Source of the DNA: Clostridiales bacterium DTU032
GTDB lineage: Bacteria > Bacillota > Clostridia > Saccharofermentanales > DTU023
Direction: 5' to 3'
Length of the DNA: 51,535 bases
Assembly (NCBI GenBank): GCA_001512745.1
Contig: LFSM01000034.1
Location: forward strand, 1-51,535
This document shows, in pieces, positions 1,717-40,146 of this stretch. Numbering within the stretch: the first letter of the stretch is position 1; the number at the start of each line of letters is the position of its first letter. A program made the translations under genes and the position numbers. The notes below the pieces were generated by a model. It had not been told where the DNA came from. It was given only the letters and a program-made list of their open reading frames with translations, and searched no databases.

Positions 1717-2690
1717 GGTTTGAAATAAAAATCGTCAGACGGTATTTTGTTACCTACAACTTGGGGATTAACACTAAACAAGGCTTCCAGATAGGCTGAA
1801 AGCTGAAGCTTCATATCCTCACCGTCGATATATACAATATTGCATTCGGGCAAAGCTTTCTTTGCCGGAATCTCTTCGAAAATACCCAAGTCAGATATCA
1901 TCTTGGCAGCTGCATCTATATTTTCTACAGCAAAATTAGCAGAATAGCCATAGCGCTCGCAGAATACTTTAACGTCCTTCTTATTTTCCTCCAGAAAATC
2001 TTTTCTGCCCACCAGTACACCTGTAATAAGCGGGCTGGATTCACCATAAATATCTGTCCATGCAGAATTCAAATCAATTGCTCTGCGAATCGACGGATTT
2101 TTGCCGGAGGCCACAGTCAGGTAAGGCTCAGGTAAGTGCCCCACGCTGCCCTCTTCAGCTAACATACGTGCTACAACTTCTGTATGCTCAGATACAAAAA
2201 CAAGGTTGACATCCTTGTCCGGGTCGATGCCGTTATTTTCCAAAACCATTCTCAAAACAATCTCCGGAGTGGCTCCCTTACCTGCTGAGTAAATAGTTTT
2301 GGACCGCAGATCTGTCACATCTTTGATGCTGTCGCCATTTTCCGCCAGATATAAAACTCCTAAAGTATTGATGGCAATAACCTGAATTTTACCTTCACTC
2401 TTGTTATAAAGTGTAGCCGCCAGATTAGCCGGTAATGCTGCCAGATCACACTCACCTTGAAGCAGCTTGGGACCGACAAGCTCCGGCTGGCTTTCGAGAG
2501 AGAAAGCATACTCAGCATCTTCATCCCCGCCATATTCAGTTAGTAATTGTGCCAAACCCATCGCAGTAGGTCCTTTTAAAGCAACAATATTAATCGCTTC
2601 TGAGGCTTTCTGCGTGCAGGACACAGAAAAAAAGGCAGCAAGTACAATTAAAACCACACATACAGTTTTGTTTATTGCTTGGTGTTTCAT
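1713..2690 (-). CDS. ABC transporter substrate-binding lipoprotein (NMT1/THI5-like)
   Basis: Signal peptide with lipobox-like SVSC; ALKGPTAMGLAQLL...LPANLAATLYNK typical of NMT1-like SBPs; ATGA overlaps with both neighbours. Confidence 0.82.
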   Translation of the reverse strand: MKHQAINKTVCVVLIVLAAFFSVSCTQKASEAINIVALKGPTAMGLAQLLTEYGGDEDAEYAFSLESQPELVGPKLLQGECDLAALPANLAATLYNKSEGKIQVIAINTLGVLYLAENGDSIKDVTDLRSKTIYSAGKGATPEIVLRMVLENNGIDPDKDVNLVFVSEHTEVVARMLAEEGSVGHLPEPYLTVASGKNPSIRRAIDLNSAWTDIYGESSPLITGVLVGRKDFLEENKKDVKVFCERYGYSANFAVENIDAAAKMISDLGIFEEIPAKKALPECNIVYIDGEDMKLQLSAYLEALFSVNPQVVGNKIPSDDFYFKP

Positions 2691-4591
2691 AAACTAGAAT
2701 CATCTTCTTTCAGCGGATAAGCTTCGCGTTGCCCATAATGGGTATGCAGGTATTTGTGAGCACGTTCACTGTTGGGCTCACCAAAGAATCTTTTGTATAG
2801 TTCTTGAACATCGGAATTCTTATATGACTTGCGTTCATTTTGAGCAAGATCTTCATCATAGAGAGCTTTCGCTCTGGCCGGGCGTGGGTCAAGAAATATC
2901 CTTTCTCTGGCCGGAACATATGGTTGTCCGCCACCGTGAATACATCCACCGGGACAAGCCATAACTTCTATAAAATGATATTTCTTTTCGCCAGATTTAA
3001 CAGCATCCAATACTTTAGCTGCATTAGCAGCTGAGCTGGCTACCGCAACTTTTAATTCTATCTCTTGCCCATCAATGGGAAGAAGGATAGTAGCTTCTTT
3101 AATTCCTTCCATACCGCGTACTTCACTATACTCAAAGTCTTCCAGATCATCTCCTGTGAGAACATCTGCTGCCGTACGCAAAGCAGCTTCCATAACTCCG
3201 CCTGATGTCCCGAATATAACACCGGCACCCGTATAGTCACCCAGGATTGAATCTGCTTCCTCATCTGCCAACTCCTGAAATTGGAGACCGCTTTGACGAA
3301 TCATACGAGAAAGCTCACGTGTAGTCAGTGAATAGTCAACATCACGCAAACCATCGACCTCCATCTCCGGTCGATTTGCCTCTGTCTTTTTCGAGGTACA
3401 AGGCATAATGGATACGGAGACGATGCTATTAGGATCAACGCCCACTCTCTCAGCATAATATGACTTAATCACTGCCCCCATCATTTGCTGCGGCGATTTA
3501 CAGCTGCTGATATTCTCTAAAAACTCCGGATAATAGAGTTCACAATAACGCACCCAGCCAGGTGAACAGGAGGTCAGCAGTGGCAGTCGTTCATTATTCT
3601 TCAGACGGCTGATTAGCTCTGTTGCCTCTTCCATAATTGTCAGATCTGCTGCAAAGTTTGTATCATAAACGCGGTCAAAGCCCAGTCTTCTGAGAGCAGC
3701 AACCATTTTTCCGGTAACGGCTGTTCCTATCGGATAGCCAAACTCTTCACCTAAAGCCGCACGCACAGCAGGTGCTGTCTGAACAATCACAAATTTATCC
3801 GGATTCTCTATTTCTTTTAAGACATCTTCTATCTGGTCTTTCTCGTGCAGGGCACCGACCGGACATGCCTCAATACACTGTCCGCAATAGAGGCAATTGA
3901 CATCTTTCATACTGTATCCGAAGGCCGGTCCTACGGTTGTTTCAAAACCGCGCTTAGAGAATTCGAGCACGCCGATTCCCTGGACTGCTTTACAGGTATT
4001 AACACATCGTCCGCAAAGAATACACTTGCTGGGATCCCGCACAATGGACCAGGATAAATCATCTATCTCTGCTTCGCGAACTGCTCCGGTAAAACGTGAG
4101 GTCTGGACACCATACATGGCGCAAAGGCGCTGAAATTCGCAATTGTCATTCCTAATACAGGAAAGGCAGTCACTATTGTGGTTAGCTTTAATCAATTCTA
4201 AATTAAGCCTTACCGTTTTTCTCACGCGTGTACTATTCGTTATAACGACCATGCCCTCAGCCGCCTTTGTTGAGCAAGCCGTAACCATACGGAAAGCTTC
4301 GCCTTTTTTACGCGCAACTTCAACAAGGCAGACTCGGCAAGAAGAGTTTTCGTTAATTTCTCGTAGATAGCAGAGTGAAGGAATTTCATAGCCTGCTTTA
4401 CGCGCAGCCATAATTAAATTCCAACTCTCCGGGCAAGTCACTTCCTGTCCGTTAATTGTCAAATTTACCAGCGGTACCTTTTCCTCCAGTTCCAGCTTCA
4501 GCTCTCCTTTCATAGCTTCAGTTCCGGAAGAAAATGGAACAGAGTGTATCTTGTTTCTTGTTTTTGTTTGACGCATAATCTTTATCCTCAA
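2687..4591 (-). CDS. hydA: [FeFe]-hydrogenase catalytic subunit HydA (NADH-dependent/bifurcating group A type)
   Basis: 2Fe-2S N-terminus, His-ligated cluster HNSDCLSC, two 4Fe-4S motifs (CILCGRCVNTC, CLYCGQCIEACP), H-cluster motifs TSCSPGW, MPCTSKK, ACPGGCIHGGGQP. Confidence 0.95.
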   Translation of the reverse strand: MRIKIMRQTKTRNKIHSVPFSSGTEAMKGELKLELEEKVPLVNLTINGQEVTCPESWNLIMAARKAGYEIPSLCYLREINENSSCRVCLVEVARKKGEAFRMVTACSTKAAEGMVVITNSTRVRKTVRLNLELIKANHNSDCLSCIRNDNCEFQRLCAMYGVQTSRFTGAVREAEIDDLSWSIVRDPSKCILCGRCVNTCKAVQGIGVLEFSKRGFETTVGPAFGYSMKDVNCLYCGQCIEACPVGALHEKDQIEDVLKEIENPDKFVIVQTAPAVRAALGEEFGYPIGTAVTGKMVAALRRLGFDRVYDTNFAADLTIMEEATELISRLKNNERLPLLTSCSPGWVRYCELYYPEFLENISSCKSPQQMMGAVIKSYYAERVGVDPNSIVSVSIMPCTSKKTEANRPEMEVDGLRDVDYSLTTRELSRMIRQSGLQFQELADEEADSILGDYTGAGVIFGTSGGVMEAALRTAADVLTGDDLEDFEYSEVRGMEGIKEATILLPIDGQEIELKVAVASSAANAAKVLDAVKSGEKKYHFIEVMACPGGCIHGGGQPYVPARERIFLDPRPARAKALYDEDLAQNERKSYKNSDVQELYKRFFGEPNSERAHKYLHTHYGQREAYPLKEDDSSL

Positions 4592-4598
4592 CTAAGCT

Positions 4599-6602
4599 CT
4601 ATCTACGCTCAATTGCGTTGAAAGCACAATTTTCAATGCAAAGTCCACAGCGGATACAAACATCCAAATCTATTTCATGAATCTCTCGCGGTTTGCCGCT
4701 GATCGCATGCACAGGGCAGATACGGGCACACTTGGTGCAGCCCTTGCAATTAGCAGTAATAATATATCCGAGCAGATTTTTACAGACATGTGAGGGACAT
4801 TGTTTATCTCTGATGTGAGTCTCGTATTCATCACGGAATTGTCTTAAAGTTGACAGAACCGGGTTAGCAGCAGTTTGGCCTAAGGCGCAAAGTGAACTCA
4901 CTTGCAAGTGCTCACCTAGTTCTTCAAGAAGATCCAGGTCGTCCATTTCGGCATGTCCTCCGGTTATGCGCTCAAGTATCTCTAACATGCGCTTAGTTCC
5001 TTCCCGGCAGGGAACACATTGTCCGCAGGATTCATCCACGGTAAACTCAGTATAGAAACGTGCAATATCTACCATGCAATTATCTTCATCCATCACAATA
5101 AGGCCACCAGACCCCATCATCGATCCGGCCGCCTTAAGAGTATCAAAATCTACTTCCAGATCCAGCTTATTTTCTGTAATACATCCTCCAGAAGGACCTC
5201 CCGTTTGCACAGCTTTGAATTTTTTATTGTCAGGACAGCCACCACCTATGTCAAAAATGACCTCTCTCAGCGTTATTCCCATAGGAACTTCAAGCAGACC
5301 TGTATGTTCTACCTTTCCTCCCAGAGCAAAAACTTTGGTTCCCGGTGAGCTTTCGGTGCCAATTGTCCGGAACCACTGTGATCCATTCAAAATAATAGCT
5401 GGAATATTCGCCAATGTTTCCACATTATTAATAATTGTCGGTTTACCAAATAGTCCATGGGCAGCGGGAAAGGGAGGTTTGTTTCGTGGCATGCCACGCC
5501 CACCCTCAATAGAGGCAATTAAAGCAGTTTCTTCTCCACAAACAAAGGCACCGGCACCTAAACGCAATTCAATATCGAAAGAAAAATCACTTGCCATGAT
5601 ATGGTCGCCCAATAACCCTAGTTCACGGGCTTGTTCTATCGCAATATTTAATCGCTTAACCGCTGTTGGATATTCCGCGCGGACATATATATATCCTTTG
5701 CTGGCGCCAATTGCATAGCCACCAATTATCATTGCTTCTAAAACAGCATGAGGGTCGCCTTCCAAAATACTGCGATCCATGAATGCCCCCGGGTCACCTT
5801 CATCAGCGTTACAGATGAAATATTTCTCTTCTGCTTTTTCACGAGCAGCGAAGCTCCATTTTATTCCGGTTGGAAAACCCGCTCCGCCACGACCGCGCAA
5901 ACCGGAGTCCGAAATACAATCAATAACAGCTTGAGCTGACATTTCAGTCAAGACCCGTTTGAGTGCAGCATATGCGCCTACGGCAATAGCTTCATCTATA
6001 CGTTCAGGATTGATATAGCCACAATTTCTCAGGACCTGGCGTTTTTGCTTTTTATAAAAAGGTAAATCTATAAAATGCTCCGGCAAACCGGCAAGGTCAG
6101 ACTCTTCGCTCTCATCTTCTATTACCAGATCTTTAGATCTGCTATCAAGCTCTGTAGTGGTAACAGGCTCTAACTTATGGCTGAGATAACTATGTGCTTC
6201 AGCTTCTCTTTGTTTTTTTTCATGCTGTTCACGTAAAAAGCCCCTTAATGTAAACTCTTCCACCGGCTCACCGCCGATCAGGTGCTGTCTTACTATCGCA
6301 ATGGCCTTGACAGGATCAACCTTCACATATGAGACTTTTTCCTTGCCTTTTTCGTATATTTCTACAATGGGCTCGAATGAACAAAGGCCAATACAGCCGG
6401 TGATTTCAAGAGAAATATCTTGCAAATCGTTTCTTTCAGCTTCCTGTCGTATGGCTTCGAAAGTTAAGTCCGCACCTGCAGAAATTCCGCAAGTAGCCAT
6501 ACCAACTGTTACCCGGAAGTGCTCAGGCTGTTCCAGTTCAGTTAATGTGCGCCGGCGCAAATTAGAAATATTTTCCCAGGATGTTCTGGTTCGTGTAATC
6601 AT
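4599..6602 (-). CDS. hydB: Bifurcating hydrogenase subunit HydB (NuoF-like, NADH/FMN binding, C-terminal 2x4Fe-4S)
   Basis: GLRGRGGAGFPTGIKW, FICNADEGDPGAFMDRS, GAGAFVCGEETALIASIEG, ESCGQCVPCREGT; C-terminal CKGCTKCARICPVHAI / CIRCGLCIENC. Confidence 0.95.
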   Translation of the reverse strand: MITRTRTSWENISNLRRRTLTELEQPEHFRVTVGMATCGISAGADLTFEAIRQEAERNDLQDISLEITGCIGLCSFEPIVEIYEKGKEKVSYVKVDPVKAIAIVRQHLIGGEPVEEFTLRGFLREQHEKKQREAEAHSYLSHKLEPVTTTELDSRSKDLVIEDESEESDLAGLPEHFIDLPFYKKQKRQVLRNCGYINPERIDEAIAVGAYAALKRVLTEMSAQAVIDCISDSGLRGRGGAGFPTGIKWSFAAREKAEEKYFICNADEGDPGAFMDRSILEGDPHAVLEAMIIGGYAIGASKGYIYVRAEYPTAVKRLNIAIEQARELGLLGDHIMASDFSFDIELRLGAGAFVCGEETALIASIEGGRGMPRNKPPFPAAHGLFGKPTIINNVETLANIPAIILNGSQWFRTIGTESSPGTKVFALGGKVEHTGLLEVPMGITLREVIFDIGGGCPDNKKFKAVQTGGPSGGCITENKLDLEVDFDTLKAAGSMMGSGGLIVMDEDNCMVDIARFYTEFTVDESCGQCVPCREGTKRMLEILERITGGHAEMDDLDLLEELGEHLQVSSLCALGQTAANPVLSTLRQFRDEYETHIRDKQCPSHVCKNLLGYIITANCKGCTKCARICPVHAISGKPREIHEIDLDVCIRCGLCIENCAFNAIERR

Positions 6603-7162
6603 GCCAGATCCTCCGCTTCACCTTTATTGTCAGCTGAGGCAACTGAGACTGTTACCGCAGCTGCTTCTTTCGAACGATAGCTATCAAGTATTTGCTCCAA
6701 CTCGTTCAAATCCACAATATTAGCGTAAACTTCCTCATCGATCATAATTACCGGAGCCAGACCGCAACAACCAATACATCTTGCAGCTGTTATGCTAAAC
6801 AAACCATCCGATGAAACTTCTCCAACCTTGATATTGAGCAGTTCGCAGAGTTTATCCAAAACCTTCTGAGAACCCTTAACATAGCATGCTGTGCCCATGC
6901 ATACTGAAATACGGTGTTTCCCTTCCGCTTCCAGTAAAAACTGGCTATAAAATGAAGATACACCGTATAGTTCTGCAACAGAAATACCTGTAAAGGCAGA
7001 AATATGTTTATGTACCTCCAAAGGCAAATAGCCAAATAACTGCTGAGCTTTTTGCAAGGCAATCATAGCTATACCTTTTTCTCCCTGTAGTTTCTTTAAG
7101 AATGTGTCAAGTTCTAAAAATCTGGGATCGTCAACTGCGATTTGCTTTGGCTGGCACATCAA
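6599..7162 (-). CDS. hydC: Bifurcating hydrogenase subunit HydC (NuoE-like 2Fe-2S thioredoxin fold)
   Basis: CMGTACYVKGSQKV...ARCIGCCGLAPVIMID; ATGA overlap with hydB. Confidence 0.93.
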   Translation of the reverse strand: MMCQPKQIAVDDPRFLELDTFLKKLQGEKGIAMIALQKAQQLFGYLPLEVHKHISAFTGISVAELYGVSSFYSQFLLEAEGKHRISVCMGTACYVKGSQKVLDKLCELLNIKVGEVSSDGLFSITAARCIGCCGLAPVIMIDEEVYANIVDLNELEQILDSYRSKEAAAVTVSVASADNKGEAEDLA

Positions 7163-7420: not shown

Positions 7421-9508
7421 TTAGCCGCAGTACTCTCTCAGTTCTTGCAGTAGATTCTTTAAAGAAGCAGTTGCGTCACCCAGGAGCAGGGCGATCTTAT
7501 CTCCCCGGCCTTCTTCATAAAGGGGGTTGTCAACACCGGCATATCCCGGCTGTTTATCATAGTTCATGATGATGACATGTTTGGCATCTTCTACTTCCAG
7601 AATAGGCATACCATAAATCGGTGTGCCTTCCGCTGTATTTGCTGCAGGGTTGACCACATCATTGGCACCGATGACGATGACCACATCAGTTTCTGCAAAC
7701 TGGGGATTGATCTCTTCCATCTCATGAAGCTTCTCATAGGGTACATCGACTTCCGCCAGAAGTACGTTCATATGACCAGGCATACGACCCGCTACCGGGT
7801 GAATAGCAAACTCCACATTCTTGCCGGCCTCTTCCAGCTCATCCATAAGATTTTTAACCAGCGGCTGAGCCTGAGACAGAGCCATGCCGTAGCCAGGCAC
7901 GATGATTATCTTCTCTGCGTCTTTGAGCCAGCGGCTATAAGCAGGAACTGTATCTTCAGTCACAGCTACTGTCACTGCCTGCGAGGTCGCTGACCGGTAT
8001 TCTTTAACCAGGTCCTTCAGAGATTCCTTGGCGTCACCCAGGAGCAGGGCGATCTTATCTCCCCGGCCATCTTCATAAAGCGGGTTGTCAACACCGGCAT
8101 ATCCCGGCTGTTTATCATAGTTCATGATGATGACGTGCTTGGCATCTGCTACTTCCAGGATCGGCATACCATAAATCGGTGTACCTTCCGCTGTATTTGC
8201 TGCAGGGTTGACCACGTCATTGGCACCGATAACGATGACCACATCAGTTTCTGCAAACTGAGGATTGATCTCTTCCATCTCATGAAGCTTCTCATAGGGC
8301 ACGTCGACTTCTGCCAGAAGTACGTTCATATGACCGGGCATACGACCCGCTACCGGGTGAATGGCAAACTCCACATTCTTGCCGGCATCTTCCAGCTCGT
8401 CCATAAGGTTTTTAACCAGCGGCTGAGCCTGAGACAGGGCCATGCCGTAACCGGGTACGATGATTATCTTCTCTGCGTCATTGAGCCAGGCAGCATAGGC
8501 GGGGCCGGTCTGTACTGCATCAGCTACAAGTTCCTCTGCTCCAGCTACCTTCACTTCAGTTTTACCAGCACCGGCTGTTACTGAGGCTGCAGCACTTTGT
8601 ATGGCCTTCACTTGTGGAGTGGAAGTTTTGCCAAGGAGGATATCTATCAGTTTGCGGTTCATTGAACGGCACATAATTTGTGTCAAAAGCAATCCGGAGG
8701 CTCCGACTATTGCACCGACTGAAACAAGCAGAGGATCTGCTATTGCCAAACCTGCGATAGCACCGGCGACACCGGAGAAAGAGTTTAGCAGTGAAATCGT
8801 AATCGGCATGTCCGCCCCACCGACACGAATAGCAAAGATGATACCGAAGAGGCCGGATATTATTGCCGAGAAAATGATTATTATTGTTTTTGCCACAGTA
8901 GCAGCCAATACAGCAGGGATACTCAAGAGCACCACAGTCAGCAGAGATAAAACTAAGGTCAAAGCGGTCCAAAGTGCGTGGCGTTTGAATTCGATCGGCT
9001 TTTGAGTAATAACACCATGTAGTTTCCCCGCAGCCACCATACTGCCGGTAAAGGTAAAGGCACCGACAAAGATTGCCAGACCGGAAGTAGCAAGTGAAAA
9101 TATATCCGCAGAAGCTCCGTCACCGGCTGCTATCAGGGTCAGAATGCCCGCTAGCATTGAAGCCGCACCACCGAAACCATTAAGCATGCCGACCATTTGC
9201 GGCATTTGAATCATATTAACTTTGACAGAAAGCCAGAGACCAATAACGGCTCCAAGCAATATGGATATATACAGCTCGACAAAAGAAAATATATTCCAGT
9301 ACCACAGGGTCAGAACAATCATGAGGAGCATGGAAACTGAGCCAAGCAAGTTGCCTTTGACTGCAGTTTTGACCTTGCTCATCATGGAAATTCCAATCAA
9401 AACAGTAATAGCCAGGATTGCTGCCAGTACATAATATATGGTGGCGGCCGTACCCGTATGGTGTGTCACAGCCAAAAAGACGGGAGAAAACGGTAAATTC
9501 ATTAACAT
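7421..9508 (-). CDS. pntB: NAD(P) transhydrogenase beta subunit with tandemly duplicated dIII domain
   Basis: Multi-TM dII (MIQMPQMVGMLNGFGG, GGADMPITISLLNSFSG) followed by two near-identical dIII domains, each with IIIVPGYGMALSQAQPLVKNLMDELE..GKNVEFAIHPVAGRMPGHMNVLLAEVDVPYEKLHEMEEINPQFAETDVVIVIGANDVVNPAAN. Confidence 0.95.
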   Translation of the reverse strand: MLMNLPFSPVFLAVTHHTGTAATIYYVLAAILAITVLIGISMMSKVKTAVKGNLLGSVSMLLMIVLTLWYWNIFSFVELYISILLGAVIGLWLSVKVNMIQMPQMVGMLNGFGGAASMLAGILTLIAAGDGASADIFSLATSGLAIFVGAFTFTGSMVAAGKLHGVITQKPIEFKRHALWTALTLVLSLLTVVLLSIPAVLAATVAKTIIIIFSAIISGLFGIIFAIRVGGADMPITISLLNSFSGVAGAIAGLAIADPLLVSVGAIVGASGLLLTQIMCRSMNRKLIDILLGKTSTPQVKAIQSAAASVTAGAGKTEVKVAGAEELVADAVQTGPAYAAWLNDAEKIIIVPGYGMALSQAQPLVKNLMDELEDAGKNVEFAIHPVAGRMPGHMNVLLAEVDVPYEKLHEMEEINPQFAETDVVIVIGANDVVNPAANTAEGTPIYGMPILEVADAKHVIIMNYDKQPGYAGVDNPLYEDGRGDKIALLLGDAKESLKDLVKEYRSATSQAVTVAVTEDTVPAYSRWLKDAEKIIIVPGYGMALSQAQPLVKNLMDELEEAGKNVEFAIHPVAGRMPGHMNVLLAEVDVPYEKLHEMEEINPQFAETDVVIVIGANDVVNPAANTAEGTPIYGMPILEVEDAKHVIIMNYDKQPGYAGVDNPLYEEGRGDKIALLLGDATASLKNLLQELREYCG
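7473..7932 (-). repeat. dIII-encoding direct repeat, C-terminal copy
   Basis: Aligns to 8031-8490 at a constant 558-nt offset (186 codons). Confidence 0.93.
8031..8490 (-). repeat. dIII-encoding direct repeat, membrane-proximal copy
   Basis: Aligns to 7473-7932 at a constant 558-nt offset; near-identical protein with mostly silent nucleotide differences. Confidence 0.93.
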
Positions 9509-9820
9509 TTATTTACCCCCCTTGTCATTACCCTCAGAGTGGAACATCCGCAGCATACGGTCTGTCACTGCAAATCCTCCGACAACATTGATCATAGCGA
9601 GGACAATAGCAATAAAGCCCAGGATCCTGCTAACAGTGTTACTCATGTCAGCGGCTACTGCAGTAGCCGTCAGACAACCCAGCACCGTAACACCTGAATA
9701 AGCATTCATGCCCGACATCAGTGGTGTATGCAGCAAGCTGGGCACGCGGTCAATAATTTTATAACCGACCAGCATAGACACCACAAAAACAACTATCAAG
9801 ATTAAATGTTCTAATCCCAT
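9509..9820 (-). CDS. pntAB: NAD(P) transhydrogenase alpha-2 subunit (membrane dII part)
   Basis: 103 aa with VPSLLHTPLMSGMNAYSGVTVLG, typical of small PntA membrane subunits. Confidence 0.92.
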   Translation of the reverse strand: MGLEHLILIVVFVVSMLVGYKIIDRVPSLLHTPLMSGMNAYSGVTVLGCLTATAVAADMSNTVSRILGFIAIVLAMINVVGGFAVTDRMLRMFHSEGNDKGGK

Positions 9821-10017: not shown

Positions 10018-11184
10018 TTAGTGTCCCAGGGCCTTAAAGGCTTCCAGGGTTCCTTTATGGACCACTTTCCCCCCATAAGTTGTCAGAGAACTCTGAATAA
10101 TCTCATCATTGAGGTCGATCACAATCTCTCCGTCTTTAATCAGGTAAGAAAGCAGATTGTAGACGTTTTGAGCAAACATCCAGGTGGAGCTGGTCGGCAG
10201 CAATCCCGGTATATTTTTAATACCGACGAGCGTTACCTTATGCTTCACCTCAGTTGTCCCCGCTGGTGTAATGGCACAGTTTCCACCCTGGTCGATGGAA
10301 ATATCGACTATGACAGAACCCGGTTTCATACTCTTGACCATTTCTTCTGTGATCAGAGTCGGAGCAACTTTACCCGGTACCAGAGCGGACAGGAATACAA
10401 TATCCATGTCTGGGAGATGCTGAGCAAGAATCTTACGTTCAGCTTCCAGTCTTTCCTCACTAAGTGCCTGGGCGTAACCGCCCTCACCGATAGCTTCTTC
10501 TGCCGGGACTTCAAGGTCGATCACCTTAGCGCCAAGTGACAGTGCCTGCTCTGCTGCAGCCGGACGAATATCCGCAGCATATACCTGAGAACCCAGCCGT
10601 TTGGCTGTAGCCAGAGCCTGCAGACCACCTACACCCACACCTACAACCAAGGTATTGATCGGTTTAATCATTCCCACAGCTGTGAAAATTTGCGGAATAA
10701 ATTTTGGCAGGGCATTCGCTGCCAAAAGTATGCCTTTATAACCAGCACAAGTGCTCATAGAAGTCAGGGCATCCATGCTCTGGGCACGGGTTATACGAGG
10801 AATACCATCCAAAGTAATGCTGGTAATTCCGTGTTCTGCCATGTGTTTTACCATTTGATGATTAACTGGTGAGGCGGGGTGGATGAAGGTAATTAACAGC
10901 TGCCCCTCATGCATAAGATCAACTTCATGCTTGTTCTGTTCCTCATTCATCAGAGGTTCTTTAACCTTCAAAATAACCTCTGCCCGCTGATAGAGATCCA
11001 CTACATTTTCAATAATCTCCGCTCCGGCCGCTGTGTAATCAGCATCATGGTAAAAAGCACCCTCCCCTGCATTCTTCTCTACTAAAACTTCGAGACCGTC
11101 TTTAACCATTTTTGCTACTGTTTCCGGCGATGCTGCAACACGTCGCTCACCCGGCATAATTTCCTTAGGAACTCCAATAATCAT
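10018..11184 (-). CDS. pntAA: NAD(P) transhydrogenase alpha-1 subunit (dI, NAD binding)
   Basis: MIIGVPKEIMPGERRVAASPETV, PRITRAQSMDALTSMSTCAGYKG, VVGVGVGGLQALATAKRLG. Confidence 0.93.
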   Translation of the reverse strand: MIIGVPKEIMPGERRVAASPETVAKMVKDGLEVLVEKNAGEGAFYHDADYTAAGAEIIENVVDLYQRAEVILKVKEPLMNEEQNKHEVDLMHEGQLLITFIHPASPVNHQMVKHMAEHGITSITLDGIPRITRAQSMDALTSMSTCAGYKGILLAANALPKFIPQIFTAVGMIKPINTLVVGVGVGGLQALATAKRLGSQVYAADIRPAAAEQALSLGAKVIDLEVPAEEAIGEGGYAQALSEERLEAERKILAQHLPDMDIVFLSALVPGKVAPTLITEEMVKSMKPGSVIVDISIDQGGNCAITPAGTTEVKHKVTLVGIKNIPGLLPTSSTWMFAQNVYNLLSYLIKDGEIVIDLNDEIIQSSLTTYGGKVVHKGTLEAFKALGH

Positions 11185-33160: not shown

Positions 33161-34399
33161 ATGCTAAAAGGAAATCTTGTCTTCGGACAATCAGGAGGAC
33201 CAACTGCTGTCATAAATTCGAGTGCTGCAGGCTTGCTGACTACAGCTCTGGCCAGCCCCTTTATTGAAGAAGTGTACGCAGCTGAACACGGAATAGTCGG
33301 AATACTGAAAGACAGACTTTTCGACATCGGCCAGGAAGAACTGAAAGAGCTAAATTTACTCACACAGACACCTTCCTCTGCTTTTGGATCCTGTCGTCAT
33401 AAATTAGCTGATCCTGCCATAGACGAAAGTGAATATAAGCGTATTCTTGAAGTTTTTGAAAAACACAATATACGCTACTTTTTTTATAACGGTGGTAACG
33501 ACACCATGGACACCTGTCATAAAATCAGTGTGTATCTGGACAAAGCAGGATATGAGTGCCGGGTAGTCGGTATTCCCAAGACTATAGACAACGACCTCTG
33601 CGGCACTGATCATTGCCCGGGCTTCGCTTCGGCTGCCAAATACGTAGCGAGCAGTTTCATGGAGATTAAATTAGACTCCCATGTCTACGATTACCCGCAG
33701 ATTATCATTGTTGAAGTCATGGGCCGTCACGCCGGCTGGCTGGCTGCATCTTCCGTATTGGCCTCGCATAAAGGAGCCGGTCCGGATCTGATCTATCTTC
33801 CGGAAAGAGACTTCTCCCTGGAACAGTTTGAGCGGGATGTCCGTGCCGTGCACGAAAAAAAGGGTGATGTCATGGTTTGTATTTCCGAAGGCTGTCAGGA
33901 TAAATACGGAAACTTTATACCTGAAATGTTCGCTGACAAAGACTTGAGAACTGATGCCTTCGGACACAAGCAACTCGGTGGAGCTGCTGATACCCTGGCA
34001 TCTTTTGTCAAAGAAAAGTTTGACGTTAAGGTTCGGGCCATAGAATTCTCTCTCCTCCAGCGCTGTGCTGCGCACATAGCATCACCGATCGATGTCAACG
34101 AAGCTTTTCAGGCAGGCAAGGCTGCATTGAATTTTGCTCTCGAGGGTTATAGTGACTTCATGCTCGGTTTTGATCGCAGTTCAAATAACCCATATAAGAT
34201 TGAAATGATCAGAGTTCCACTTGTTGAATGCGCCAATCTTGAAAAAACCGTACCGGATGAGTGGATTAATGAAGCCGGCAACTTTGTACTCCAGCCATTT
34301 ATTGACTATACACTCCCATTGATACAGGGAGAAACTGAGCGTATTGAAAAAGACGGTTTGCCGCTCTTTGCTAATTTGAAGAGAGTGCTTGTAAAGTAA
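33161..34399 (+). CDS. Phosphofructokinase, probably PPi-dependent
   Basis: FGQSGGPTAVINSS; GGNDTMDT and PKTIDND signatures typical of PPi-PFK rather than ATP-PFK (GGDGS/PGTIDND). Confidence 0.9.
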   Translation: MLKGNLVFGQSGGPTAVINSSAAGLLTTALASPFIEEVYAAEHGIVGILKDRLFDIGQEELKELNLLTQTPSSAFGSCRHKLADPAIDESEYKRILEVFEKHNIRYFFYNGGNDTMDTCHKISVYLDKAGYECRVVGIPKTIDNDLCGTDHCPGFASAAKYVASSFMEIKLDSHVYDYPQIIIVEVMGRHAGWLAASSVLASHKGAGPDLIYLPERDFSLEQFERDVRAVHEKKGDVMVCISEGCQDKYGNFIPEMFADKDLRTDAFGHKQLGGAADTLASFVKEKFDVKVRAIEFSLLQRCAAHIASPIDVNEAFQAGKAALNFALEGYSDFMLGFDRSSNNPYKIEMIRVPLVECANLEKTVPDEWINEAGNFVLQPFIDYTLPLIQGETERIEKDGLPLFANLKRVLVK

Positions 34400-34450
34400 T
34401 AATACAGGCTTACAAAGCCTTGACCATACAAAGAAGGGAACGAATCGCAA

Positions 34451-34954
34451 ATGGAAGCAAGTCAAGAAACCGTAGGTATTGATCAGCTGGATCTTAGCCT
34501 CCTGGATCCGGTTCTGAAAGCAAACAGTGGCCAAAAAGGCAGTGCTATAGCCATATTGCAGGAGGCTCAGGGAATATATGGTTATCTGCCTATAGAAGTG
34601 CTGGAAAAAATATCTGAAGTAACACAGGAGCCTTTAGCCAAACTCTATGGCGTAGCCACCTTCTACACCCAATTTCGGATGAAGCCGGTCGGCAAGCATC
34701 TGATTATGCTCTGTCAGGGAACCGCCTGTCATGTTATGGGTGCGGATCGTGTGCAGCAGGCAATAGAAGACGAGTTGCAGATCGAGAACGGCGAAACAAC
34801 GGAAGATGGCGTCTTCACTTTAATGACGGTAGCCTGTCTGGGTTGCTGTTCACTTGCTCCCGTAATGATGATTGATGGAGAAACATACGCAAGTCTGACA
34901 CCTGATTCAGTCCGTAAAATTTTACGTAAGATGCGAAAGGAAGCAGATGCATAA
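34451..34954 (+). CDS. NuoE/HydC-like 2Fe-2S subunit
   Basis: IAILQEAQGIYGYLPIEVL, CQGTACHVMGAD, VACLGCCSLAPVMMIDGE. Confidence 0.93.
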   Translation: MEASQETVGIDQLDLSLLDPVLKANSGQKGSAIAILQEAQGIYGYLPIEVLEKISEVTQEPLAKLYGVATFYTQFRMKPVGKHLIMLCQGTACHVMGADRVQQAIEDELQIENGETTEDGVFTLMTVACLGCCSLAPVMMIDGETYASLTPDSVRKILRKMRKEADA

Positions 34955-35032
34955 TCTTGTTCTTTCTTCAATAAAAATATTAATCCCCTCTGATCCCTGG
35001 AGATCATTGACACAGAATATAAGGAGTAATCA

Positions 35033-36793
35033 ATGAGAGTAGTTGTTGGTGCTGGCAGCTGCGGGCTTGCTGCCGGAGCGGATAGCCTGGTTCAAGAGCT
35101 GAAAACCAGAGACCTTGGTCCTGATACCGTGCTGGAAATCACCGGCTGTGTCGGCATGTGTTATCTGGAACCGATTGTTGATATATATGATGATTGCGGT
35201 CAACTGCATCGTTTTACACATGTCAAAGTAAAAGATCTGGATACTATTCTGGAAAAATTTGATGAAGATAGCTGCAATCAGTTTAGAATATCTGAAGATG
35301 ACGAACGAATTTTAGGCAAACAAGTGCGTATCGTTTTGCGCAACTGCGGCGTCATCAATCCTGAAAGTATTGACGATTACATCGCCAGCGGAGGCTATAC
35401 AGCCCTGGAGCGCTGCCTTAAAGAAATGTCACCGGAAGATGTCATCGAAGTAATTAAGGAATCCGGACTGCGCGGACGCGGCGGTGCCGGCTTCCCGACC
35501 TGGTTCAAATGGAATGCAGCCAGAAATGCTAAAGGAAAAGACAAATATATGATCTGCAACGCTGACGAGGGTGACCCCGGAGCGTTTATGGACCGCAGCA
35601 TTCTTGAAGGTGACCCACATTCATTGCTGGAAGGCATGCTGATCGGGGCTTATGCGATTGGTGCAGAGACCTGCATGATCTACGTACGTGCGGAATATCC
35701 GCTCGCCATCAAACGTCTTAAGATAGCGATTGAACAGGCCAGACAGCGTGGGTATTTAGGCAAAAATGTTATGGGCGTCAAAGGTCTCAACTTCGAAATG
35801 ATCATCCGCGCCGGAGCAGGCGCTTTCGTCTGTGGTGAAGAAACAGCCCTGATTGCGTCGCTCGAAGGAGAGCGCGGCATGCCCAGACTCAAGCCTCCCT
35901 TCCCTGCAGAACGCGGATATTTCCAGAAACCTACTAATATTAATAATGTTGAAACACTAGCCAATGTTCCCTATATCATTGCCAAAGGCCCTCAGGCCTT
36001 TACCAAATACGGTACTGAAAAAAGTCCTGGCACTAAGGTGTTCGCACTGACCGGCAAAATCAAGAAGGGCGGACTTGTGGAAATCCCCATGGGAACACCC
36101 CTGCGCGATATTATCTACGATATCGGCGGAGGTATTATTGATGACCGTGAGTTCAAAGCAGTCCAGATGGGCGGTCCCTCCGGTGGCTGTATCCCCGCTT
36201 CACTGATGGATACACCGGTCGACTACGAAAATATTACCAAGACCGGAGCCATCGTCGGTTCAGGTGGAATGGTCGTTATGGACGACAGCACCTGTATGGT
36301 TGAAATGGCACGTTTTTTCCTTGATTTCACCTGTGAAGAATCCTGTGGAAAGTGCACTTACTGCAGGTTGGGAACCAAGCGTATTCTGGAAATTTTAGAA
36401 CGCATCACTGCCGGCGAAAGTCATGCCGATGACATCAAACTGCTGGAAGAGATCTGTCCCAAAGTAATGGACGGTTCTCTCTGCGGACTCGGTCAGACGG
36501 CCCCTAACCCTGTACTGACTACCATTAAGTATTTCCGCGATGAATACGAAGCGCATCTGGACGGAAGATGCCCGGCAAAGGTTTGTCAGCCGCTGATTCA
36601 TTATCATATCAATGAAAACTGTACCGGCTGCACCATCTGTGCGCGCAACTGCCCTGTCGGCGCTATTGAGGGAGCATTAAAAGAAGATCATATTATCGAT
36701 CAGGATATGTGTACGAAATGTGGTATCTGCTTCCAAAAATGTAAATTCAACGCAATTGATCTCTTGGAAGGAGCCTATGTATGGGAAAAATAA
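35033..36793 (+). CDS. NuoF/HydB-like NADH-binding flavoprotein subunit
   Basis: GLRGRGGAGFPTWFKW, CNADEGDPGAFMDRS, GAGAFVCGEETALIAS, ESCGKCTYCRLGT; C-terminal 2x4Fe-4S. Confidence 0.94.
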   Translation: MRVVVGAGSCGLAAGADSLVQELKTRDLGPDTVLEITGCVGMCYLEPIVDIYDDCGQLHRFTHVKVKDLDTILEKFDEDSCNQFRISEDDERILGKQVRIVLRNCGVINPESIDDYIASGGYTALERCLKEMSPEDVIEVIKESGLRGRGGAGFPTWFKWNAARNAKGKDKYMICNADEGDPGAFMDRSILEGDPHSLLEGMLIGAYAIGAETCMIYVRAEYPLAIKRLKIAIEQARQRGYLGKNVMGVKGLNFEMIIRAGAGAFVCGEETALIASLEGERGMPRLKPPFPAERGYFQKPTNINNVETLANVPYIIAKGPQAFTKYGTEKSPGTKVFALTGKIKKGGLVEIPMGTPLRDIIYDIGGGIIDDREFKAVQMGGPSGGCIPASLMDTPVDYENITKTGAIVGSGGMVVMDDSTCMVEMARFFLDFTCEESCGKCTYCRLGTKRILEILERITAGESHADDIKLLEEICPKVMDGSLCGLGQTAPNPVLTTIKYFRDEYEAHLDGRCPAKVCQPLIHYHINENCTGCTICARNCPVGAIEGALKEDHIIDQDMCTKCGICFQKCKFNAIDLLEGAYVWEK

Positions 36794-39700
36794 GTATTAC
36801 AATAAATGGCCGGACCATTGAGGCAGAGCAGGGTCAGACAATTTTTCAAATAGCTCGCGATCATGACATCTACATTCCCAGTCTCTGTCAGGATGATAAA
36901 CTGGATAGCTACGGTTCCTGCGGCATGTGTGTCGTAGAGGTTGAGGGAAACCGTAAACTCGTGCGCTCCTGTTCAACACCGGCTACAGACAAGATGGTAA
37001 TAAACACAAGGTCAGAGCGCGTTAATGAATCCCGCACTACAGCTTTGGAGCTTTTTATCAGCAACCATACCGGCGACTGTAAAGCTCCCTGCTCGCTCAC
37101 CTGCCCCGATAATCTGGACATTCAGGGCTACGTCGGCTTATGCGGCAACGAAGAATATGATGCGGCTTTGCGTCTGATAAAAAAAGATCTGCCTTTGCCC
37201 GCATCCATAGGTCGCATATGTCCACACCCCTGCCAGACAGCCTGCCGCCGTGCTTTAATTGATGATGATATTGAAATAAACTATCTCAAACGCTTTGTCG
37301 CCGACCGTGACCTCAATTCAGGCGATCCCTACCGTCCTCTGCAAAAAGACTGGACTGGCAAACATGTGGCAATCGTCGGCGGCGGTCCCTCCGGACTTAC
37401 AGCTGCCTACTTCCTCCTGCTAGAGGGCCATGACGTCACTGTCTATGATGAAAATCCGGAATTCGGCGGCATGTTGCGTTACGGAATTCCTATGTATCGC
37501 TTGCCTAACGACATTATTTATCAGGAAGCTCAGCTGATCGCAGACATGGGAGCGACATTTGTAGCCAACACCAAAATTGGCCGCGACCTTTCTCTCGACT
37601 ATCTGCGCGAAAATTTCGATGCGGTTTATGTCGCTGTCGGCATGTGGCAAAGTATCCCGCTCGGCATTGAAGGCGAAAATCTTGCCGGTGTTTATGGCGG
37701 TATCGATTTTCTTTATGACTTCTGTGTCGGACGTCCCCAGCGCCTGGGCAACAAAGTAGCTGTCATCGGCGGCGGCAATACTGCAATGGACGCAGCCCGC
37801 ACGGCTGTTCGCCTGGGAGCAGAAGAAGTTACAGTACTCTATCGCCGGACCAAAAAAGACATGCCGGCGGAGGAAATCGAAATAATCGAAGCTGAAGAAG
37901 AGGGTATCAATTTTAAATTTCTGGTCGCTCCTGATTCATTGACAGGGAAAGATGGCCATCTTAAGAGTATCAAACTGCAGAATATGAAAGCTATCCCTCC
38001 GGAAAAACCCGGTGAACGCAGCAAGATAGAAGCGATTGAAGGAGCCTTCACAGAGTTGGAGCTGGACAGTTTAATTGTAGCTACCGGACAAAGAAGCAAT
38101 CTGAGTGGTCTGGAAGATCTGGCCACAGATAAGCGGGGCCTGATTGATGTCACAGCCGGAACCTATCAAACATCTCTTCCCGGTGTTTTCGCGGGCGGGG
38201 ATGTGATTAACAACGGCAACAAGATCGCTATTCAGGCGATTGCCGATGCCAAACATGCTTCTTATGTGATCTCAAACTACCTTAACGGCAAAGAGGTAAG
38301 CTATGTTCCCGACTACCATGTCGTGCGCAAGGACGTCACCAGGAAAGAACTCCTCAAAACCCATACTCTTGCTGACAGCGCAAAAATGGATCACCTGACT
38401 CCTGGCGAGCGACGCGATAACTTCCACGAAATCGCTGCCGGTTATACGGAAGAGCAGGCTCAGTACGAAGGTGATCGCTGCCTCGAATGCGGCTGTATGG
38501 ATTACTTTGAGTGCGACCTCTTCGATCAGTTCAACCAGTATGATGTTGTTCCTGAACGTTTTGCCGGCAAAATGAGTGCCTTTGATCATGACAACAATCA
38601 TCCCTATATTCTGATTGATCCAAACAAGTGCGTGCTTTGCGGCATGTGCGTCCGTGTCTGTGACGAAGTAATGGGTGTTTACGCCTTAGGTCTGGCAGAC
38701 CGCGGTTTTGAGTCACGCATGATGCCGGCAGCTGAGCGCAGACTGCAGGATACTGCCTGTATCTCCTGTGGTCAGTGTGTAGAGCTTTGCCCTGTCGGAG
38801 CCTTGCAGGAACGCCGCCCCGTACATAAGCAAGTCCCTCTGGACAGCGAGTATACTCTGACTACCTGCGCCGGCTGCTCACTTGGCTGCTCCCAGATACT
38901 GGAAAGTACCGGCAATATGTTGCTGAGGGCCCTGCCGGTAGAAAACTGTGAGGTCTCTGGTGGTCTCCTCTGCGTCAAGGGCCGCTTTGAGCTGGATAGA
39001 TTCCTGCTGGCAAAAGAAGATCGTCTTGAACGTCCTCTGGTACGCCGTGACGGAGAATTTGAGGAAACAAGCTATGATGAAGCCATCCTCTCATTCACCC
39101 GGGGAGCCCAGTCCTTGCTGGCAGTAGAAGGCGCTGACAAACTGGCTGTCTCGGTCTCAGATGAATACACTCTGGAAGAAATCGCTCTGATTCGCTCTTT
39201 TGCTGAATCATTACTTGAAAACACAAAACTCTATAGTTTGAACTATAAGAAGAGTGCCCTGGAAGAAGTTCTCGGATCAGACAGTTCACCTAACACCTTT
39301 AATGAAATCTTTTTAACTGACCTCGTCATAGTCGTGGGAGGAGATCTCCTTAATACTCACCCCATGCTGGCGACAAAGATTCGCCGCGCCAATAAGGAAG
39401 GTGTCCGTCTCGGTATCATCAACACACACGATACCCTGATGGATAAATGGACCCCGGACAAGGTCAAAGGAGATAAGTTGGCTGATCTCCTGCAAAGCTT
39501 CAGTGAGTCCGATTCAGATTTAGCTCAGCGCTACCGTGAGTCCAGACGTGCTATCCTCGTCTATGATAAGGATGCACTCAGCTATGAGGAAGAAATCAAG
39601 CTGATCGAACTTGCACAAAAGAGCGGGCATTTCGGTTCGCCGGGCAATGGAGTAATCCAGGTCAAGGCCAATGCCAACTCGCAGGGTCTCTACGACCTGG

Positions 39701-40146
39701 GTGTAAGAGGAAGCCGTGAAGAGCTGCTTAAGAGCATCGATACAGGGCAGGTTAAAGGCCTGCTCGTCTTTGGCGACAGTGACCTGCCTGAAGAGTATGC
39801 CGCTAAGCTTTCCTTCCTGGCTGTCCAGGCTACGAAATATACTCCGGCCTTTACACACGCTGATGTCATCTTGCCGGGCTCATGCCTGGCTGAAAAAGAA
39901 GGCCTGATAACCAGCAGTGAAGGCAGAGTCCAGGCTCTTGAGCCGGTAATTGCTACTGATGCAGGCAGCTTTGATCAGTTGCGTTATTTCTGGCATCATT
40001 TTGATCGTTCTGATGATGATATAGACTTACAGACAGCGCGTGAAGCTGTAGTTTTCTACAATCAGGCCTATCAGGCGATTCTGGATCCGGAAAATATGGA
40101 TATCTGGGTTCGTCCGCTGGAAGCTAAAATAAAACTGGAAGACTGA
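36781..40146 (+). CDS. Fused oxidoreductase: 2Fe-2S ferredoxin + GltD/NfnB-like FAD/NAD(P)H module + 2x4Fe-4S + NuoG/Fdh-like domain lacking catalytic Cys/Sec
   Basis: CGMCVVEVEGNRKLVRSC; CPHPCQTACRR; VAIVGGGPSGLTAAYFLLLEGHDVTVYDENPEFGGMLRYGIP; VIGGGNTAMDAARTAVRLG; CVLCGMCVRVC; CISCGQCVELCPVGAL; TCAGCSLGCSQ...LLCVKGRF. Confidence 0.92.
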   Translation: MGKISITINGRTIEAEQGQTIFQIARDHDIYIPSLCQDDKLDSYGSCGMCVVEVEGNRKLVRSCSTPATDKMVINTRSERVNESRTTALELFISNHTGDCKAPCSLTCPDNLDIQGYVGLCGNEEYDAALRLIKKDLPLPASIGRICPHPCQTACRRALIDDDIEINYLKRFVADRDLNSGDPYRPLQKDWTGKHVAIVGGGPSGLTAAYFLLLEGHDVTVYDENPEFGGMLRYGIPMYRLPNDIIYQEAQLIADMGATFVANTKIGRDLSLDYLRENFDAVYVAVGMWQSIPLGIEGENLAGVYGGIDFLYDFCVGRPQRLGNKVAVIGGGNTAMDAARTAVRLGAEEVTVLYRRTKKDMPAEEIEIIEAEEEGINFKFLVAPDSLTGKDGHLKSIKLQNMKAIPPEKPGERSKIEAIEGAFTELELDSLIVATGQRSNLSGLEDLATDKRGLIDVTAGTYQTSLPGVFAGGDVINNGNKIAIQAIADAKHASYVISNYLNGKEVSYVPDYHVVRKDVTRKELLKTHTLADSAKMDHLTPGERRDNFHEIAAGYTEEQAQYEGDRCLECGCMDYFECDLFDQFNQYDVVPERFAGKMSAFDHDNNHPYILIDPNKCVLCGMCVRVCDEVMGVYALGLADRGFESRMMPAAERRLQDTACISCGQCVELCPVGALQERRPVHKQVPLDSEYTLTTCAGCSLGCSQILESTGNMLLRALPVENCEVSGGLLCVKGRFELDRFLLAKEDRLERPLVRRDGEFEETSYDEAILSFTRGAQSLLAVEGADKLAVSVSDEYTLEEIALIRSFAESLLENTKLYSLNYKKSALEEVLGSDSSPNTFNEIFLTDLVIVVGGDLLNTHPMLATKIRRANKEGVRLGIINTHDTLMDKWTPDKVKGDKLADLLQSFSESDSDLAQRYRESRRAILVYDKDALSYEEEIKLIELAQKSGHFGSPGNGVIQVKANANSQGLYDLGVRGSREELLKSIDTGQVKGLLVFGDSDLPEEYAAKLSFLAVQATKYTPAFTHADVILPGSCLAEKEGLITSSEGRVQALEPVIATDAGSFDQLRYFWHHFDRSDDDIDLQTAREAVVFYNQAYQAILDPENMDIWVRPLEAKIKLED

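What the first reader, a model, noticed from the sequence alone, without database searches (positions are those of the whole stretch)
7421..9508. Transhydrogenase beta subunit with two tandem dIII (nucleotide-binding) domains
Seen directly: the ORF continues uninterrupted through two copies of the whole dIII domain (7473-7932 and 8031-8490, constant 558-nt/186-codon offset). The proteins are almost identical over about 150 aa. By hand I see around twenty nucleotide differences in a ~370-nt comparison, mostly silent. Known biology: PntB normally has one dIII, and the dimeric enzyme is thought to alternate its dIII domains between dI (hydride transfer) and dII (proton transfer). Two dIII per protomer would let one dock on dI while its twin docks on dII. 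I am not aware of a described PntB of this kind. The near-perfect protein conservation despite silent divergence suggests selection and/or gene conversion on both copies.
Basis: partly seen in the sequence, partly recalled or inferred. Interest (0 to 1): 0.82.

Follow-up and report, generated by a model that had tools for sequence, protein, structure and literature searches.

The report
Transhydrogenase with repeated nucleotide-binding domains
A membrane enzyme resembling the NADPH-making transhydrogenase carries its nucleotide-binding domain twice in one protein (relatives carry one to four), and this whole branch of the family has lost the NADP-gripping residues while keeping the active site of an alanine dehydrogenase, so it is probably a different, unrecognised energy-coupling enzyme.

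Summary
The ORF at 7421-9508(-) is PntB with two intact dIII domains (92.3% nt, 152/161 aa identical; dS 0.29, dN 0.027).

It is not a quirk of one MAG. Of 62 related PntBs, 34 have 2, 3 or 4 dIIIs in one frame, among them complete single-contig genomes (Petrimonas sp. IBARAKI, 2; two Bacillota, 2 and 4).

Every one of 110 aligned dIIIs in this branch, single or tandem, has N-[F/Y/L/M]-D where known transhydrogenases have K-R-[S/G], the NADP-binding motif. The partner dI (PntAA) carries the alanine-dehydrogenase residues R15, K75, H96, S134, D270 and N300 (11/11 AlaDH; 82/82 branch members where covered). None of 19 canonical PntAs has K75, H96 or D270. The transhydrogenase RQD loop and the NAD Asp of dI are also kept. 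Tandem dIII occurs only in this branch (34/62 against 0/19).

Best reading: an all-NAD(H), membrane-coupled dehydrogenase of alanine/pyruvate type, whose repeated dIIIs work as extra swinging nucleotide carriers. Domains, motifs and copy number are shown; coenzyme, substrate and coupling are inferred. No description was found in the open-access papers searched.

The parts
10018..11184 (-). PntAA-like dI subunit (388 aa): RQD loop (R133, Q135, D138) plus AlaDH-type residues R15, K75, H102 (=H96), M143-S144 (=M133-S134), D298 (=D270), N324 (=N300); NAD Asp D205
   Evidence: AlphaFold pLDDT 90.8, best PDB matches transhydrogenase dI
9509..9820 (-). PntAB-like subunit (103 aa, part of dII)
   Evidence: PF12769 4e-31; aligned to T. 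thermophilus alpha2
7421..9508 (-). PntB-like subunit, dII + two dIII (695 aa)
8621..9442 (-). dII transmembrane part, aa 23-296 (D233 and R285, equivalents of E. coli D213/R265, invariant)
8486..8620 (-). dII-dIII linker, aa 297-341, low-confidence/flexible in the model
8003..8485 (-). dIII copy 1, aa 342-502
8114..8122 (-). N-Y-D (aa 463-465) in place of K-R-S, copy 1
7928..8002 (-). 25-aa linker between the dIII copies, EYRSATSQAVTVAVTEDTVPAYSRW
7448..7927 (-). dIII copy 2, aa 528-687
7556..7564 (-). N-Y-D (aa 649-651) in place of K-R-S, copy 2

Best explanation
The operon encodes a member of a large unrecognised branch ('N-type') of the transhydrogenase superfamily. SHOWN: one PntB-like chain with dII and two complete dIIIs (1-4 in relatives); in every dIII the NADP motif K-R-[S/G] is replaced by N-[F/Y/L/M]-D; dI keeps the hydride-transfer (RQD) loop and the NAD-type Asp and also has the complete active-site set of alanine dehydrogenase. 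INFERRED (about 0.75): dIII binds NAD(H), not NADP(H), because two positive residues are lost and an invariant acid is gained where the 2'-phosphate sits. INFERRED (about 0.5): dI performs 2-oxoacid/amino-acid chemistry, most likely pyruvate + NH4+ to alanine or the reverse. INFERRED (about 0.3): the parts form an energy-converting dehydrogenase in which NADH on dIII passes hydride to NAD+ on dI, dI reduces the imine of a small 2-oxoacid, and dIII docking and release gate ion movement through dII as in transhydrogenase; reductive amination of pyruvate by NADH is exergonic enough (roughly -37 kJ/mol, own knowledge) to pay for an ion. Tandem dIIIs act as several tethered swinging carriers, like repeated lipoyl or acyl-carrier domains, so a loaded dIII is always near dI while others exchange nucleotide or sit on dII.
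For: Motif: N-x-D in 110/110 branch dIIIs against K-R in 10/10 canonical, confirmed in 9 further canonical loci; same spacing to GYAG, no gap. The KRS motif (PntB 424-426) is part of the NADPH site (PMC9529548). dI: R15-K75-H96-S134-D270-N300 in all 82 branch dIs where covered and in 11/11 AlaDH; 0/19 canonical have K75, H96 or D270. These residues are essential in AlaDH (PMC10401832, PMC4691113). Two sites on different subunits change together. Tandem dIII is confined to the branch (34/62 vs 0/19, Fisher 6e-6). Stand-alone AlaDH over cut-off is rarer in N-type Bacillota (5/23 vs 107/221, p = 0.016) and absent from 6/6 named N-type genomes. Some operons start behind an Lrp/AsnC regulator or lie near class-III aminotransferases. 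Sequence clusters: N and K each one side of a branch, AlaDH outside (the fuller quick tree leaves the deepest N forks open).
Against: No biochemistry. The two motif changes lie on one deep split, so they are perfectly associated but not independent events. With AlaDH as outgroup the AlaDH residues may simply be ancestral. R. rubrum dI, a real transhydrogenase, keeps a His near H96 and the N300 equivalent, so single residues are not diagnostic. dI fold and sequence are closer to PntA than to AlaDH (365 vs 173 bits). Gene context is not conserved. Five of 23 N-type genomes also have an AlaDH. A dIII nicotinamide and an oxoacid cannot occupy the same place on dI at once, so the proposed relay needs alternation. 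The channel His (E. coli beta-H91 or Thermus alpha2-H42) is missing, though canonical clostridial enzymes lack it too.
Confidence: 0.45

Rival explanations
1. Ordinary proton-translocating NAD/NADP transhydrogenase with an unusual NADP site; the second dIII lets one dIII work on dI while its twin works on dII.
For: Complete dI/dII/dIII set in one operon; RQD loop, D213/R265 pair and dIII residues R350, D392, Y431 conserved. Canonical dI2 binds one dIII tightly and a second weakly (PMC5742237).
Against: K-R replaced by N-[F/Y/L/M]-D in 110/110 dIIIs; complete AlaDH active site in dI; copy number 1-4, not fixed at 2.
Confidence: 0.2
2. dIII binds NAD(H), but the AlaDH-like pocket of dI is only an ancestral leftover. 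The enzyme exchanges hydride between NADH and NAD+, working as a gated proton channel, a redox sensor or an A/B-side scrambler.
For: NAD-type signatures on both dI and dIII; AlaDH is the outgroup, so the pocket may be old.
Against: Six pocket residues invariant in 82 divergent sequences while canonical enzymes lost most of them argues for present use; an isoenergetic exchange has no evident benefit.
Confidence: 0.15
3. The tandem copies are a neutral by-product: unequal crossing-over expands and shrinks a dIII array and gene conversion keeps copies alike, with no gain from copy number.
For: Copy number varies 1-4 among close relatives; 79/104 copies nearest to one in their own gene; a decayed third dIII lies 26 bp behind a two-copy PntB (L175 7294-7764).
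Against: Arrays persist in many lineages and at least three phyla, all copies keep the active-site residues, median dN/dS about 0.08, and never in 19 canonical genes. Compatible with the best explanation for the dI and dIII sites; it disputes only the benefit of the repeats.
Confidence: 0.2

Closest known systems
Proton-translocating nicotinamide nucleotide transhydrogenase (PntAA/PntAB/PntB; PF05222+PF01262, PF12769, PF02233)
   Same: Gene order, domain set, dI fold (TM about 0.9 to R. rubrum dI), RQD loop, dII fold, dIII fold and loop residues other than the K-R-[S/G] motif.
   Different: 1-4 tandem dIIIs instead of one; N-x-D instead of K-R-[S/G]; AlaDH residues K75/H96/D270 in dI; scores under the NCBIfam cut-offs for PntA and PntB.
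Alanine dehydrogenase (TIGR00518)
   Same: R15, K75, H96, M133, S134, D198, D270 and N300 equivalents, all invariant in the branch.
   Different: Carries the RQD loop, sits in an operon with membrane dII and dIII, and scores 165-200 bits against a cut-off of 392.
Tandem swinging-carrier domains (repeated lipoyl domains of dehydrogenase complexes, tandem acyl-carrier proteins); from own knowledge, analogy only
   Same: Near-identical cofactor-carrying domains repeated on flexible linkers, copy number varying between relatives.
   Different: Unrelated folds; dIII binds a nucleotide non-covalently.

Membership tests
Proton-translocating NAD(P) transhydrogenase | dI, dII and dIII encoded together | tested here: met
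Proton-translocating NAD(P) transhydrogenase | RQD loop of dI for hydride transfer to dIII | tested here: met
   Q and D 100%, R 68/71 in the branch
Proton-translocating NAD(P) transhydrogenase | NADP site of dIII: K-R-[S/G] loop E motif | tested here: not met
   N-[F/Y/L/M]-D in 110/110 dIIIs
Proton-translocating NAD(P) transhydrogenase | Single dIII per PntB | tested here: not met
   two in the window; 34/62 in the branch have 2-4, 0/19 canonical
Proton-translocating NAD(P) transhydrogenase | Channel histidine (beta-H91 or alpha2-H42) | tested here: inconclusive
   absent, but also absent from canonical clostridial enzymes
Proton-translocating NAD(P) transhydrogenase | Curated NCBIfam cut-offs | tested here: not met
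   PntAA 365 of 383, PntB 529 of 689 bits; a K-type clostridial PntB also misses (426), so weak
Proton-translocating NAD(P) transhydrogenase | NADPH-NAD+ hydride transfer coupled to protons | not testable with these tools
Alanine dehydrogenase | R15, K75, H96, D270 catalytic set | tested here: met
   window R15, K75, H102, D298
Alanine dehydrogenase | TIGR00518 equivalog cut-off (391.85) | tested here: not met
   173 bits; an N-type relative 199.7
Alanine dehydrogenase | Alanine/pyruvate turnover | not testable with these tools

The most novel reading that the evidence does not exclude
N-type 'PntAB' complexes are energy-converting amino-acid dehydrogenases: NADH held on one of several tandem swinging dIIIs is oxidised by dI, which reductively aminates a small 2-oxoacid (pyruvate to alanine), and the free-energy drop moves ions through dII. 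This would be an energy-conserving site in fermenting bacteria not known to me, and a living link between alanine dehydrogenase and transhydrogenase.
Probability: 0.28. Interest if true: 0.93.

Novelty: new variant of a known kind. Interest (0 to 1): 0.8.

Why it matters
Most transhydrogenase-type complexes in the sampled Bacillota are of this branch (about 23 of 29 genomes with PNTB_4TM were typed N; 2 typed K) and would be annotated as NADPH-producing PntAB. If dIII binds NAD(H), many metabolic reconstructions of fermenters credit them with an NADPH source they do not have. The AlaDH pocket suggests an unrecognised coupling site. Natural one- to four-dIII versions of one enzyme also make the open question of how dIII shuttles between dI and dII directly testable.

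Tried and rejected
Assembly artefact as a general explanation: rejected, tandem dIII in complete genomes. Loss of channel His as a branch hallmark: rejected, canonical clostridial PntB/PntAB lack it too. Sirtuin-like NAD motif from NCBIfam hits: dropped, hits weak and erratic. Coenzyme swap (dI taking NADP): rejected, the dI beta2 Asp is invariant. Functional linkage to the neighbouring HydABC: not supported beyond the genus. Conserved neighbours naming the substrate: not found. Viral spread: none. In one search the column labelled K75 was K73; corrected with a stronger contrast.

Full report
OBSERVATION. The window holds, on the minus strand, an operon PntAA (10018-11184), PntAB (9509-9820), PntB (7421-9508). 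PntB is one open frame of 695 aa with dII (aa 23-296) and two dIIIs (aa 342-502 and 528-687). The DNA repeat has a 558-nt period. The copies share 92.3% of bases and 152 of 161 residues; 27 synonymous and 10 non-synonymous differences give dS 0.29 and dN 0.027. That is far beyond chance and shows purifying selection on both. An AlphaFold model gives both dIIIs as folded domains (blocks mostly 65-90 pLDDT) joined by a flexible linker to dII; its best PDB matches are transhydrogenase beta subunits and dIIIs.

IS IT AN ARTEFACT? The window's genome is a 125-contig MAG with one PntB. Relatives in the same family and other phyla have two, three or four dIIIs in single frames. They include a complete genome (Petrimonas sp. 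IBARAKI, two copies 95% identical) and single-contig Bacillota genomes with two (L168) and four (L171). In the genus, two species have three copies, and several contigs end or hold N runs inside the array, so the window's own count of two may be low. Non-redundant counts of complete genes: branch 28 single, 9 double, 20 triple, 5 quadruple; canonical 19 single, none tandem. The raw output (70 and 20) contains nine loci fetched twice, removed. The sample was gathered by similarity to the window, so 34/62 is not a population frequency; in the even phylum sample roughly half of the typed N-type genes were tandem.

CONCERTED EVOLUTION. For 79 of 104 dIIIs in tandem genes the nearest dIII is in the same gene, and median dN/dS between copies is about 0.08. 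Arrays are therefore expanded, contracted and homogenised within lineages, while every copy keeps the active-site residues. One genome shows a decayed third dIII just behind a two-copy gene (L175).

In loop E, canonical PntB has K-R-[S/G]-x-x-x-G-[Y/F]-x-G; the KRS motif (E. coli 424-426) belongs to the NADPH site (PMC9529548); that it holds the 2'-phosphate is my own knowledge of the crystal structures. All 110 dIIIs of the window's branch have N-[F/Y/L/M]-D-x-x-P-G-Y-A-G at exactly the same spacing, against K-R in 10/10 canonical sequences, and later canonical loci from Planctomycetota, Actinomycetota, Pseudomonadota, a haloarchaeon and Bacillota were again all K-R. Among columns that separate the groups this is the only radical change in dIII. 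Loss of two cations and gain of an invariant acid at the 2'-phosphate position points to NAD(H).

Aligned with alanine dehydrogenases, dI of the branch has R15, K75, H96, M133, S134, D270 and N300 wherever covered (71 classified and 11 unclassified sequences), identical to 11/11 AlaDH; none of 19 canonical dIs has K75, H96 or D270. Arg15, Lys75, His96 and Asp270 are the pyruvate-binding and catalytic residues of AlaDH (PMC10401832, PMC4691113). dI also keeps the RQD loop and the Asp that fixes NAD. R. rubrum dI keeps a His near position 96 and the Asn but has Gln for K75 and Glu for D270, so the set decays within canonical enzymes. In a tree with AlaDH outside, the N-type and K-type dIs fall on separate sides (K 98, N 87 SH-aLRT); the fuller quick tree leaves the deepest N-type forks open. 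Retention of an ancestral pocket therefore cannot be excluded, but invariance over so much divergence argues for use.

DISTRIBUTION. In an even sample of 250 Bacillota genomes, 29 have PNTB_4TM; about 23 of these could be typed N and 2 typed K. AlaDH over the curated cut-off is present in 5 of 23 N-type genomes against 107 of 221 genomes without PNTB_4TM (p = 0.016) and in 0 of 6 named N-type genomes. Genomes are not independent, so this is a hint. Neighbours are not conserved; an Lrp/AsnC gene directly in front of PntAA in a rumen/gut group, class-III aminotransferases and M20 peptidases recur a few times.

MECHANISM. Shown: domain order, copy number, motif states and their association. Inferred: (a) dIII carries NAD(H); (b) dI binds a small 2-oxoacid/amino acid; (c) hydride runs NADH(dIII) to NAD+(dI) to the imine (or back), and dIII docking on dII gates an ion, as dIII does in transhydrogenase (PMC5742237, PMC8551311). 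Step (c) is the only scheme I found in which two NAD sites on one transhydrogenase frame do useful work. Extra dIIIs then serve as additional tethered carriers; only one dIII binds the canonical dI dimer tightly, so carriers would compete and alternate.

MEMBERSHIP. Homologous to PntAB by every domain test, but I do not file it as an NADP transhydrogenase because the NADP motif fails. It has the AlaDH catalytic set but is not an AlaDH by the curated model. It works like a transhydrogenase frame carrying a dehydrogenase active site.

NOVELTY. Searches of the open-access library found no tandem-dIII PntB and no PntAB of this motif type; subscription journals are mostly missing, so this is weak evidence of absence.

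Noticed in passing
window 2687-7162 (-): HydABC-like [FeFe] hydrogenase genes (hydC, hydB, hydA) directly downstream of pntB on the same strand; shared with one congener (L071) but not with L031/L032.
   Followed up: partly
window 33161-40146 (+): Phosphofructokinase followed by hydC-like, hydB-like (Complex1_51K) and a 1121-aa ORF fusing a GltD/Nfn-type flavoprotein region with a molybdopterin oxidoreductase region: a possible pyridine-nucleotide-linked formate dehydrogenase.
   Followed up: partly
L106 (G016:C9) and L014: One genome of the window's family carries both an N-type three-dIII complex and a canonical KRG transhydrogenase.
   Followed up: no
L175 7294-7764 (-): Decayed third dIII (lost GYG and GYAG residues) 26 bp behind a two-dIII PntB.
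   Followed up: partly
L040, L044, L054, L063: In rumen Clostridia the last dIII of the array differs from the others (GASD for GAND), a hint of specialisation among copies.
   Followed up: no
L163 8888-16155: In a complete genome pntB is separated from pntAA-pntAB by about 4 kb including a sigma-54 activator on the other strand.
   Followed up: no
L062 4966-6984: Single 673-aa ORF with dI, a shortened dII and one dIII; fusion by deletion or an assembly error.
   Followed up: no
L176 8817-10906: N-type operon broken into several short frames in a 1.6-Mb two-contig genome; pseudogene or another genetic code.
   Followed up: no
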